This document shows positions 28,454 to 31,701 of a DNA stretch of 64,000 nt, piece after piece. Source of the stretch: Candidatus Metalachnospira gallinarum (GTDB lineage: Bacteria; Bacillota; Clostridia; Lachnospirales; Anaerotignaceae). The stretch is from assembly GCA_904378045.1 (NCBI GenBank), contig CAJFHC010000010.1:1-64000 (forward strand), in the 5' to 3' direction. The notes under the pieces are model-generated. The model ran no database searches. It was not told the DNA's origin and worked only from the letters and a program-made list of their open reading frames with translations. Both the position numbers and the translations under genes were made by a program. The stretch's first letter is position 1, and every line of letters starts with the position of its first letter.

Positions 28454-28933
28454 TTATTTCTTTACAAGTTTTTTATTGTTTCTTGCCAGTTCATAATCCG
28501 GCAGAAGATTTCTTTTCATCATCGCCTCAAGGGTCTTTATCATGTCAACCTCCGGCATGCCTATCTCATCGGCAAGCATCGGCACCATAAGCGTTCCTTC
28601 GTCCTCGACCTCAAATATCACCCTTCTGTAGGTCTTTGATTTTTTATATCCCTCATAGCCCATTCTGGCGAAAACGACTCCGGAAATTCCGTAAATAGCG
28701 CAATAGGCCATATAGGAGTCCCCAAGTAGGTAAGCCACCGTCACGGCTCCGACCATAAACAGCGCGCCAAATACCATTGAAATAAGTCCGAGATTAAGAC
28801 AGGTCTTTCTGCTGAACTGTCCCCTCTTCCACGCCAAAAAAGCTCCGAGAGGCCATATCAGCGCCGTTACTATCACAATAAACACCCAGCTGCAATATAA
28901 TGGGATCCTGTCTTTGTCATTAGCAATACTCAT
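28454..28933 (-). CDS. Unknown membrane protein with cytoplasmic tail
   Basis: This 159-residue protein has three hydrophobic segments in the first 90 residues (WVFIVIVTALIWPLGAFLAW, LGLISMVFGALFMVGAVTVAYL by parts, and MAYCAIYGISGVVFAR). A cytoplasmic tail with EVEDEGTLMVPMLADEIGM then LKTLEAMMKRNL-type helices could be a small helix-turn-helix-like or interaction module. It lies 34 bp after the CARF nuclease gene on the same strand and ends the operon. Function unknown. Confidence 0.65.
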   Translation of the reverse strand: MSIANDKDRIPLYCSWVFIVIVTALIWPLGAFLAWKRGQFSRKTCLNLGLISMVFGALFMVGAVTVAYLLGDSYMAYCAIYGISGVVFARMGYEGYKKSKTYRRVIFEVEDEGTLMVPMLADEIGMPEVDMIKTLEAMMKRNLLPDYELARNNKKLVKK

Positions 28934-28967: not shown

Positions 28968-30155
28968 TTATACTCTACGCCATTTCAGAGCGACTATGTC
29001 CTGCTCGGTTATAGCTCTGTAGAGCCTCTCCCCAAAGTCACGGCTCTTTATGTCTTTTCTGTCAAGCACTATTATACCAAATTCCTCGGCCTTTTTAAAG
29101 GTTCCCGTATTTTTTATTTTATCGTCGCCCGATGTAACGATAACTCCCTTTGAGAACCAGCCTCCAAGCCTCTTTTTCTGTATATAGAGCTCGTTGATGT
29201 CAGGAGTTGATATTCCCCTCAGCTTACATGATATGAATACCGGAATGGAATTTTCCATTATTATAACGTCTATCTCGTTTCCGGCAGCTCTTATATCGTC
29301 ATAGGCGTCCCAGTCTATCATTGCGCCCAGCTTTACGTCCGAAAATTTTCCAAGCCTCTTCGCGCTTATGAAAACGAACATCTCAAGCCAGAGTCCGTAG
29401 GTCGTCATATATGTTTTCGCCTCAGGATAGAGGTAAGTAAAACTGACTCTGTTATTTGACATGCTAAGATTTTTTATAAATCCGTTTTTCTCAAACGCCT
29501 CAAGCATTCCGGGATTCGGCCTGTATTTTCTTCCGTCCTTATGGATGAACGTCATATTGGCGGAAAAATTCAGCCCGTATTCCATCACCGAATTTACGGC
29601 CTGAAGGTATCCGCATGTATAGCTCCAGTTCCTTAGGTCCTTGAATATATAATGGCACATATTCAATATGCTGTCATAATTTTTCTCGTCCGGCTCCCTG
29701 TGGGACTCGCCGACAAACTGGGCCCCTTTTGCGTCCATAAAGTCGTCGAGTGTAAGGCGCACCGTGTCCATTGTAAAATCCGGATCGTCTATGTCCATTA
29801 TTTTACCCGCGGCTATATCCGTGTAATACATCCTTATGTGCCCGTCAAGCCCCGCCCTGTGTCCGGCGATCATCATAAGCTCGCTTCCTCCGGTGAGCTC
29901 CATAACGCAGTCACCGTATTTTTTAATGACTCCGGACGTTTTGCCGTATATATCCCTTACGTTATTTATGTCCACCGGTATTTTTTCCAGCTTTATCCCC
30001 GGAAGATGCTTTTTGAAGCACTTTTTAAGGGCGGCAAAATATTTGTCGTCGGTAACGGCGCTGTCGTATATATATACTATTCTGTCAGGCTTTATGGTCA
30101 GAACGGAAAGTATGTTTTTAATTGTGTCTTTGTCAAAAAACTCTATAAGCGTCAT
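28968..30155 (-). CDS. CARF domain - PD-(D/E)XK nuclease (DUF1887, Card1/Can2-like)
   Basis: This is a 395-residue two-domain protein. Residues 1-150 form a Rossmann-like CARF domain with the ligand-loop motif CVMELTGGSELMMIAG (TGG at 88-90). The C-terminal third is a restriction-endonuclease fold with E258 in GLWLEMFVFI and NEIDVIIMENSIPVFISCK, giving D296 and K311; the usual ExK is SxK here (S309). Characterised family members (Card1, Can2) are activated by cyclic tetra-adenylate made by type III CRISPR complexes and cut nucleic acid. No CRISPR array or cas gene is in this window. Instead the gene lies 15 bp after gerW and is probably cotranscribed with ytfI-gerW, so its activator and role are open. 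Confidence 0.85.
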   Translation of the reverse strand: MTLIEFFDKDTIKNILSVLTIKPDRIVYIYDSAVTDDKYFAALKKCFKKHLPGIKLEKIPVDINNVRDIYGKTSGVIKKYGDCVMELTGGSELMMIAGHRAGLDGHIRMYYTDIAAGKIMDIDDPDFTMDTVRLTLDDFMDAKGAQFVGESHREPDEKNYDSILNMCHYIFKDLRNWSYTCGYLQAVNSVMEYGLNFSANMTFIHKDGRKYRPNPGMLEAFEKNGFIKNLSMSNNRVSFTYLYPEAKTYMTTYGLWLEMFVFISAKRLGKFSDVKLGAMIDWDAYDDIRAAGNEIDVIIMENSIPVFISCKLRGISTPDINELYIQKKRLGGWFSKGVIVTSGDDKIKNTGTFKKAEEFGIIVLDRKDIKSRDFGERLYRAITEQDIVALKWRRV

Positions 30156-30170
30156 AATTCTGTCCGGCTG

Positions 30171-30566
30171 TTACTCAATTACCGTCTTTTCCTCAAATAC
30201 CGTCTCTTCTTCCTTCTTTTCTCCCTTGCCCTTCTTTCCGAAGGCCGAGCCAAAGTTGAGCTTTGCAGCTATTCCGGGAGCCATGTCTATGAGCTTGCTT
30301 ACGGCGTCCTGGTTTTTGATGTTGATGAGCTGCACGCTTCCGTTGACTATGGCGATGACCGCGCTGGGAGTTATTTTTGCTCCGAGTCCGCCTCCGCCGG
30401 CTCCGTTTTCGGCTCCTCCGGCCCCGACGCCAACAGAAACGTCAACAAGCGGAATGAGCGTTACCTCTCCCACCTTTACGGCGTCTCCGACTACCGTTTT
30501 TGAGGATACAAAGTCCTCTACTTTATTCATTAAAGTTTCAAGATTTCCCGCTGTGTTATTTGCCAT
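30171..30566 (-). CDS. gerW: GerW family sporulation protein (YtfJ)
   Basis: This 131-residue spore protein is required for normal germination in Bacillus. The start MANNTAGNLETLMNKVEDF follows GGGTGATAAAA. The glycine-rich core VSVGVGAGGAENGAGGGGLGAK (key part GAGGGGLGAK) and the following ITPSAVIAIVNG are diagnostic, and the tail is Lys/Glu-rich. It overlaps the end of ytfI by 11 bp, as in Bacillus where ytfI and ytfJ are neighbours. Confidence 0.95.
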   Translation of the reverse strand: MANNTAGNLETLMNKVEDFVSSKTVVGDAVKVGEVTLIPLVDVSVGVGAGGAENGAGGGGLGAKITPSAVIAIVNGSVQLINIKNQDAVSKLIDMAPGIAAKLNFGSAFGKKGKGEKKEEETVFEEKTVIE

Positions 30567-31701
30567 TTTTATCACCCTTTATCAATAGTATTATTATTTT
30601 TCTCACCGGTTTTACGGCTATAAATCTTAATATATAAAACATCAGGAAGGCGGGGACTATATATCCCTTTATTCTTGTCTCGCCCTCAATGATCTCTCTG
30701 TCGAACACGGCCTGAACTTCTATTCTTTTATTCAGAACGCCGTTAAGGCTCCATGCCGCCCCGACTATTCGTCCCGTAAGTGAAGGATCTGACAGGCCCA
30801 GCTTTCCAACAAGATAAAAGTCCTTCGGCTTAACGCTTCTGAATATGGACTTTATAAGCCTGACTGCCGCCGATATGAGCTTTTTCCTCTCGTCCTTCGG
30901 CATCTTTATGAAATACTCGGCGTTCAGGCTTACGCTCTTTTCTTCGCTCTCCGCTTTTTTATCTTCTTTTCCGTCTTCTTTTTTATCGTCATTATTGCCT
31001 TTTTGGGCAGGCTCGGCGTTTGCTCCTTCATTTTTCCCGTACGATTTTTTGATCCCGACGGCTGGCTTTTTAGCGGCTTCTTCAGCATTACCGTCATCGT
31101 CACGCATTTTGACGTATTTGATTTTTATATCGCCCTTTTGCGCCGGCTTTTCCTTTATTTCTTTTCTGATGTCGGCCAGCCTGACGACCCTTACCGCCGG
31201 CTCTCTTTCCTCCGCCGTGATATTTTCCCAGTCTGCCGGAGAGGACGGCTCATAGTTTCGCCTTTCCGGCTCGATTTTGACCGCCGGAGTTTCCCTCTTC
31301 TTTGCCTGAGGAATCGGGTGCTGTTCCCCCTTTTTCACGGCGCCGTTTTTTTGCGGCTCCGTTTTTTTCGGAATTTCAACGGGCTTCTTTTCGGCCTTTT
31401 CGTCTTTAACGGCCGAATTTTCATCCTCTTTTTCATCTGGCTCATTTTCAAAGGCTTTAAGTCTCTTTCCGAATATCCTCACGGAAGTAGATACACCGCC
31501 GTCCTTATATCCGAGATCTATCCTCAATATCCCGAAAAGCGCCTTCACTTTGGCCGCCGCCATCGTCTTATCATATTTTTCGCCCTTTATCTCATAAAAC
31601 ACAGGACAGAATATGATGACCAGAAAAAGTATCAAAACAGCGGCTATTGCCCAAAGAACAGCTTTGCCTGCCGTTTTAAGTATTTTCAAAAACATCGTCA
31701 T
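30556..31701 (-). CDS. ytfI: DUF2953 membrane protein (YtfI-like)
   Basis: This 381-residue protein has an N-terminal membrane helix (AVLWAIAAVLILFLVIIFC) and the DUF2953 start FYEIKGEKYDKTMAAAKVK. A long charged insertion of about 170 residues rich in Lys, Glu, Pro and Ala follows, then the conserved C-terminal part (YLVGKLGLSDPSLTGRIVGA ... IIEGETRIKGYI). The low-complexity insertion makes it longer than typical family members. Adjacency to gerW supports a spore envelope function. The start overlaps the stop of the upstream gene as ATGA. Confidence 0.85.
   Translation of the reverse strand: MTMFLKILKTAGKAVLWAIAAVLILFLVIIFCPVFYEIKGEKYDKTMAAAKVKALFGILRIDLGYKDGGVSTSVRIFGKRLKAFENEPDEKEDENSAVKDEKAEKKPVEIPKKTEPQKNGAVKKGEQHPIPQAKKRETPAVKIEPERRNYEPSSPADWENITAEEREPAVRVVRLADIRKEIKEKPAQKGDIKIKYVKMRDDDGNAEEAAKKPAVGIKKSYGKNEGANAEPAQKGNNDDKKEDGKEDKKAESEEKSVSLNAEYFIKMPKDERKKLISAAVRLIKSIFRSVKPKDFYLVGKLGLSDPSLTGRIVGAAWSLNGVLNKRIEVQAVFDREIIEGETRIKGYIVPAFLMFYILRFIAVKPVRKIIILLIKGDKNGK

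What the first reader, a model, noticed from the sequence alone, without database searches (positions are those of the whole stretch)
28968..30155. CARF-nuclease (Card1/Can2-like) embedded in a sporulation operon with no CRISPR nearby
The protein combines a CARF domain (TGG loop at residues 88-90) with a PD-(D/E)XK nuclease domain. Characterised relatives respond to cyclic oligoadenylates from type III CRISPR complexes. Here the gene is 15 bp after gerW and in line with ytfI, DUF1461 and a small unknown gene, and no array or cas gene is within the window. Either it borrows a signal from a distant type III locus or it senses a different nucleotide, possibly during sporulation.
Basis: partly seen in the sequence, partly recalled or inferred. 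Interest (0 to 1): 0.7.

Follow-up and report, generated by a model that had tools for sequence, protein, structure and literature searches.

The report
CRISPR-free CARF nuclease in spore operon
A nuclease built like the emergency enzymes of type III CRISPR immunity has become a fixed, vertically inherited part of a spore-gene operon in one family of gut bacteria, where no CRISPR system makes its usual signal and its sensor pocket has turned acidic, so it probably answers to something else.

Summary
Window 30155..28968 (minus strand, 395 aa) encodes a full CARF–PD-(D/E)XK protein of the DUF1887/Can2-Card1 fold, 15 bp after gerW. It is not a stray CRISPR effector. In its family (f1, Anaerotignum and relatives) it is present in 55/58 genomes (37/37 high-quality ones). 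It lies directly behind gerW, on the same strand, in 50/50 loci read (49 within 80 bp), and forms one clade. A real cas10 occurs in only 6/58 of these genomes. The window's own genome has no cas10, cas1 or SMODS cyclase. Three Can2 residues that contact cA4 align with invariant Asp8, Asp31 and Glu92, so cyclic oligoadenylate is an unlikely ligand. The nuclease site is also a variant: the Glu of ExK is Ser309, and an invariant Glu322 sits on the next helix, where solved relatives carry Lys. This resembles the "PD-XXK-E" site of Cfr10I/NgoMIV, so it is probably active. The same variant occurs scattered through Clostridia, mostly without cas10. Best reading: a CRISPR-independent, probably forespore-expressed nuclease with an unknown, non-cOA trigger. 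Activity, ligand and expression are inferred. PADLOC already lists the protein cluster; the spore-operon link and active-site swap were not found in the papers searched.

The parts
28968..30155 (-). CARF-PD-(D/E)XK nuclease, 395 aa; CARF domain residues ~1-125, linker/helical middle ~130-240, nuclease domain ~245-384
30132..30134 (-). Asp8, end of CARF strand 1; aligns with cA4-contacting Ser19 of Can2; invariant in 51/51 family sequences
30063..30065 (-). Asp31, aligns with cA4-contacting Thr42 of Can2; invariant 51/51
29880..29882 (-). Glu92 (TGGSE), aligns with cA4-contacting Lys99 of Can2 (TGGTK), the conserved basic residue of CARF domains; invariant 51/51
29223..29231 (-). Ser309-Cys310-Lys311, in place of the Glu-x-Lys half-motif of the nuclease site
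29190..29192 (-). Glu322 on the helix after Lys311 (helix 317-330): predicted migrated catalytic carboxylate
   Evidence: PMC551604
30171..30575 (-). gerW/ytfJ family gene, 134 aa, directly upstream of the nuclease gene
   Evidence: PF09579 65.9 bits; adjacency
30556..31701 (-). DUF2953 (ytfI-like) membrane protein, same operon
   Evidence: PF11167 33.6 bits
31698..32393 (-). Lit/DUF1461-like integral membrane protein, same operon
   Evidence: PF07314 145 bits
32383..32709 (-). small unknown protein (108 aa), head of the conserved gene row
   Evidence: no family hit; conserved upstream of Lit in most relatives
28454..28933 (-). 159-aa membrane protein 34 bp downstream; seen only in the window's own genus, so probably not part of the conserved unit

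Best explanation
A CRISPR-independent CARF nuclease, adopted once into the gerW operon of the family's ancestor and kept ever since as a single-copy core gene. It is expected to be a homodimer of the VC1899/Can2 fold. Its CARF pocket at the dimer axis has exchanged the residues that hold cyclic tetra-adenylate for invariant acidic ones, so its trigger is something other than a cyclic oligoadenylate. Its C-terminal PD-(D/E)XK site is predicted to be a working, metal-dependent nuclease in which the second carboxylate has moved from the ExK strand (now Ser309) to the next helix (Glu322). Because the gene is transcribed behind gerW, which is forespore-specific in Bacillus, it most likely acts in the developing or germinating spore. 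There it would cleave or nick nucleic acid when the trigger is present, as a genome-maintenance or phage-exclusion step. Shown here: fold, conservation, synteny, single origin, absence of cOA synthases, residue exchanges. Inferred: dimer, catalytic activity, ligand class, forespore expression, purpose.
For: Core gene: 55/58 family genomes, 37/37 high-quality. One clade, support 96/94. Its divergence tracks gerW and DUF2953 (Mantel r 0.85 and 0.84). gerW directly upstream on the same strand in 50/50 loci, median gap about 33 bp, while downstream genes differ between genera. Two of the three genomes without it are incomplete and lack gerW as well. Spo0A in 57/58 genomes. No cas10, cas1 or SMODS cyclase in the own genome; strong cas10 in 6/58, SMODS in 0/58. 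Pocket: Can2 Ser19/Thr42/Lys99 (contacts listed in PMC7969007) align with Asp8/Asp31/Glu92, invariant 51/51. Best structural match is VC1899, an orphan CARF nuclease with an acidic pocket that cA4 does not regulate. Active site: Glu258, Glu294, Asp296, Ser309, Cys310 and Lys311 invariant in 31 sequences down to 19% identity, Glu322 in 28/31. Can2, VC1899, Card1 and Cdn1 have Glu at 309 and Lys at 322, i.e. the reverse. 'PD-XXK-E' is an established active form in Cfr10I, NgoMIV and Ecl18kI (PMC551604). Strong purifying selection: dN about 0.15 against dS at or above 1.5 within the genus (dS near saturation). GerW is forespore-specific and sigma-F dependent in B. subtilis and B. megaterium (PMC4366231).
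Against: No activity, binding or expression data. A double mutant that includes the ExK glutamate was used as inactive TsuCan2, so Ser309 could mean a dead enzyme. Three distant relatives (L118, L120, L122) combine Ser309 with Lys322 and have a Glu only at 319, so the exchange is not perfectly coupled. The promoter scan found no clear sigma-F/G site before the operon. One genome with gerW lacks the gene (G055, 84% complete). GerW's own function is unknown; it is dispensable for Bacillus germination. Spo0A presence cannot discriminate, because nearly every member has it.
Confidence: 0.55

Rival explanations
1. A classical Can2/Card1 effector that answers to cyclic oligoadenylate made by a type III CRISPR complex elsewhere in the genome.
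For: Fold and domain order match Can2/Card1; six family genomes do have a strong cas10.
Against: Own genome has no cas10 or cas1. 49 of the 55 carriers lack a strong cas10. The pocket residues that hold cA4 are acidic and invariant. Gene is vertically inherited.
Confidence: 0.06
2. A pseudo-enzyme: the nuclease site died when the ExK glutamate was lost, and the protein now works as a ligand-binding or nucleic-acid-binding scaffold in the spore.
For: The second acidic residue of the half-motif is Ser in all members. One relative (L053) has lost the whole site and still persists. Three relatives lack Glu322.
Against: Glu258, Glu294, Asp296, Lys311 are invariant down to 19% identity and Glu322 nearly so, which a dead site would not keep. 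The migrated-carboxylate form is active in restriction enzymes.
Confidence: 0.2
3. A CRISPR-independent CARF defence nuclease (abortive-infection type) that happens to be carried and expressed with a housekeeping operon, with no role in sporulation itself.
For: PADLOC lists the cluster among defence candidates. The relatives elsewhere in Clostridia are scattered, in changing neighbourhoods, as defence genes often are.
Against: In this family the gene is neither patchy nor in a defence island; it is a core gene with fixed synteny. Nothing nearby looks like defence.
Confidence: 0.19

Closest known systems
VC1899 (PDB 1xmx), orphan DUF1887 protein
   Same: Best structural match (Z 31.9 over 358 residues); not CRISPR-linked; acidic residues where Can2 binds cA4 (PMC7969007).
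   Different: Keeps the Glu-x-Lys half-motif and Lys on the next helix; 15% identical. No spore-operon context (V. cholerae does not sporulate; own knowledge).
Can2 / Card1 (PF09002; PDB 7bdv, 6wxw)
   Same: Same CARF + PD-(D/E)XK architecture and fold (Z 29.0 and 26.4); Glu-x-Asp and Lys of the site kept.
   Different: Can2/Card1 belong to type III CRISPR loci and are switched on by cA4; here no cas10, acidic pocket, Ser309/Glu322 exchange.
PADLOC PDLC01895 'CARF4--CARF_PDDEXK'
   Same: Full-length match, E = 6e-150: the protein cluster itself is already catalogued.
   Different: The entry carries no description or function; the operon, core-gene status and active-site variant are not in it.
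Cfr10I / NgoMIV / Ecl18kI restriction enzymes (PD-XXK-E active site)
   Same: Carboxylate moved from the (D/E)XK strand to another place while Lys stays (PMC551604).
   Different: Similarity of active-site layout only; no homology beyond the superfamily fold was tested.

Membership tests
CARF--PD-(D/E)XK proteins (DUF1887/Card1-like fold family) | N-terminal CARF Rossmann domain followed by C-terminal PD-(D/E)XK domain in one chain | tested here: met
   Pfam PF09002 over cut-off, PADLOC CARF4 full length; AF2 model pLDDT 90, Z 26-32 to VC1899/Can2/Card1
Can2/Card1 effectors of type III CRISPR | Encoded with, or in a genome with, a cas10 that makes cyclic oligoadenylate | tested here: not met
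   No cas10 or cas1 in own genome (95.5% complete); strong cas10 in 6/58 family genomes
Can2/Card1 effectors of type III CRISPR | cA4-contacting residues (Can2 Ser19, Thr42, Lys99; alcoholic residue after strand 1, basic residue after strand 4) | tested here: not met
   Asp8, Asp31, Glu92, invariant 51/51
Can2/Card1 effectors of type III CRISPR | Nuclease switched on by cA4 | not testable with these tools
   needs a biochemical assay
PD-(D/E)XK nucleases, orthodox site | Asp/Glu-x-Lys half-motif | tested here: not met
   Ser309-Cys-Lys311 in all 51 family sequences; solved relatives have Glu-Cys-Lys
PD-XXK-E variant of PD-(D/E)XK nucleases | Lys kept on the strand, Glu supplied from the following helix | tested here: inconclusive
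Spore (gerW operon) gene | Conserved same-strand position in the gerW operon | tested here: met
   50/50 loci, gaps 4-77 bp in 49 of them
Spore (gerW operon) gene | Sporulation-specific expression | not testable with these tools
   promoter scan gave no clear sigma-F/G site; GerW is forespore-specific in Bacillus

The most novel reading that the evidence does not exclude
The CARF domain has been re-purposed in the spore from nucleotide sensing to sensing of a cation or cationic metabolite (for instance divalent metal or polyamine levels in the forespore) through a dyad pocket of invariant carboxylates (Asp8, Asp31, Glu92, possibly Asp10). It gates a PD-XXK-E nuclease that acts on nucleic acid during spore formation or germination.
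Probability: 0.12. Interest if true: 0.85.

Novelty: new variant of a known kind. Interest (0 to 1): 0.62.

Why it matters
CARF proteins are read almost everywhere as receivers of type III CRISPR alarm signals. Here is a family-wide, vertically inherited CARF nuclease that very probably is not one, tied to a spore gene whose own function is unknown. It gives a concrete, testable case of a CARF domain with another ligand, a second evolutionary variant of the Can2 nuclease site spread across Clostridia, and a handle on what the gerW operon does. It also warns that defence-gene scanners that label such proteins as antiphage effectors may be wrong.

Tried and rejected
Distant type III locus in the same genome: no cas10, no cas1. 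CBASS cyclase as a source of cyclic oligoadenylate: SMODS 0/58. Weak PF22335 hits (under about 40 bits) were treated as GGDEF proteins, not cas10: most match only the second half of the model, and the family also rings in the E. coli control. Assembly artefact or contamination: the same order is seen in named isolates (Anaerotignum sp. MSJ-24, Tyzzerella sp. An114, the complete Chakrabartyella piscis genome). Sigma-F/G/E promoter search on operon-upstream stretches: scattered matches only, inconclusive. The downstream 159-aa membrane protein as a partner: limited to the own genus. The 2020 CARF classification paper is not held, so whether it discusses this cluster is unknown. Distance checks on the model were not possible (no coordinates). 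dN/dS by YN00 failed on saturated pairs; NG86 values are quoted.

Full report
What is there. The finding is on the minus strand: window 30155..28968, 395 codons, ATG start, 15 bp behind the stop codon of gerW. Pfam gives the Card1 endonuclease domain over its cut-off and the Card1 CARF domain just under it. PADLOC gives CARF4--CARF_PDDEXK PDLC01895 over the full length at E = 6e-150. The AlphaFold2 model built from 14 window and locus sequences has mean pLDDT 90 and pTM 0.86. Its best solved matches are VC1899 (Z 31.9, 358 residues), Can2 (Z 29.0) and Card1 (Z 26.4). The upstream genes on the same strand are gerW (PF09579), DUF2953/ytfI (PF11167), Lit/DUF1461 (PF07314) and a 108-aa unknown.

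How conserved it is. A scan of 84,980 genomes with peptide patterns gave 13 relatives of 46-77% identity, all with gerW directly upstream. In the window's family (f1; it includes Anaerotignum sp. MSJ-24, Tyzzerella sp. An114 and Chakrabartyella piscis) 55 of 58 genomes have it, and 37 of 37 high-quality ones. Two of the three without it are incomplete and also lack gerW; one (G055) has gerW without it. In all 50 family loci read, gerW is upstream on the same strand: 49 with a gap of 4-77 bp, one with 584 bp. Downstream genes differ from genus to genus. The family's proteins form one clade (96/94) with genera in order, and their divergence follows gerW and DUF2953 (Mantel r 0.85 and 0.84). This is vertical inheritance of a core gene, unlike a CRISPR effector.

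No source of cyclic oligoadenylate. The own genome (95.5% complete) has no cas10 and no cas1. In the family, strong cas10 hits (E below 1e-35) occur in 6 of 58 genomes and Cas1 in 18 of 58. SMODS cyclases occur in 0 of 58. A core gene cannot well depend on a signal that nine in ten of its carriers have no known enzyme to make.

The pocket. In Can2 the conserved cA4 contacts are Ser19, Thr42, Lys99 and Tyr118; in the orphan VC1899 the equivalents are Asp9, Asp34, Arg96 and Val115, and cA4 does not regulate that protein (PMC7969007). Aligned through the family profile (the offset of 11 residues at the N terminus agrees with the structural alignment), the first three fall on Asp8, Asp31 and Glu92, each invariant in 51 of 51 family sequences; the fourth falls on Tyr or His. 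The 2014 CARF survey names an alcoholic residue after strand 1 and a basic residue after strand 4 as the superfamily's ligand-binding signature (PMC4012209); both are replaced by acids here. A polyanionic cyclic oligoadenylate is therefore an unlikely ligand. Their invariance says that the pocket is still used.

The nuclease site. Glu258, Glu294, Asp296 and Lys311 are kept everywhere in the family, but the Glu of the Glu-x-Lys half-motif is Ser309. In a wide set of 31 sequences down to 19% identity, Glu258, Glu294, Asp296, Ser309, Cys310 and Lys311 are invariant and Glu322 is present in 28. Aligned to solved relatives, Can2, VC1899, Card1 and Cdn1 all have Glu at position 309 and Lys at position 322: the carboxylate seems to have moved to the next helix (317-330). 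The same kind of rearrangement, 'PD-XXK-E', is known from Cfr10I, NgoMIV and Ecl18kI (PMC551604). I infer an active site of that type. Three distant relatives with Ser309 and Lys322 (L118, L120, L122; Glu at 319) and one that lost the whole site (L053, left out of the wide set) show that it is not universal.

The wider clade. Outside the family, 18 of about 334 genomes of the order, and 45 genomes of a class-wide sample of 391, have weaker relatives. Nearly all those read carry Ser-Cys-Lys, none lies by gerW, and their neighbourhoods differ. Of the 45, four have a real cas10 and in only one (G597, the weakest match) is it nearby. So a Clostridia-wide branch of CARF nucleases is generally free of CRISPR, and one family fixed it in a spore operon. 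Only 20 of the 45 were read gene by gene.

How it most likely works. A dimeric, ligand-gated nuclease in the developing or germinating spore with a non-cOA trigger. GerW is sigma-F dependent and forespore-specific in Bacillus, but dispensable for germination, and its role is unknown (PMC4366231). Spo0A is present in 57/58 genomes, so the family carries the master regulator of sporulation. My promoter scan gave no clear sigma-F/G site. Whether the nuclease serves genome maintenance, RNA turnover or phage exclusion is open.

Novelty. The fold and cluster are known (Can2/Card1; PADLOC). The core-gene status in the gerW operon, the acidic pocket and the active-site exchange were not found in the papers searched, but the 2020 CARF classification is not held, so priority is not established.

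Noticed in passing
L053:8506-9729 (G347:C119): A relative that has lost Glu258, Glu294, Ser309, Lys311 and Glu322: apparently a pseudo-enzyme that keeps the CARF domain.
   Followed up: partly
G004:C13:51704-52887: The nuclease gene is split into two ORFs around residue 328 in this genome: frameshift or sequencing error.
   Followed up: no
L083 (G053:C143): The only family locus with a long gap (584 bp) between gerW and the nuclease gene; content not examined.
   Followed up: no
G055:C16 (L098): gerW operon present but serC- and serA-like genes follow instead of the nuclease: the one credible loss in the family (genome 84% complete).
   Followed up: partly
window 28454-28933 (-): 159-aa membrane protein 34 bp downstream of the nuclease gene, found only in the window's own genus.
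   Followed up: partly
L118, L120, L122: Relatives that pair Ser309 with Lys322 and carry Glu at 319, one helical turn earlier: possible second solution of the same active-site problem.
   Followed up: no
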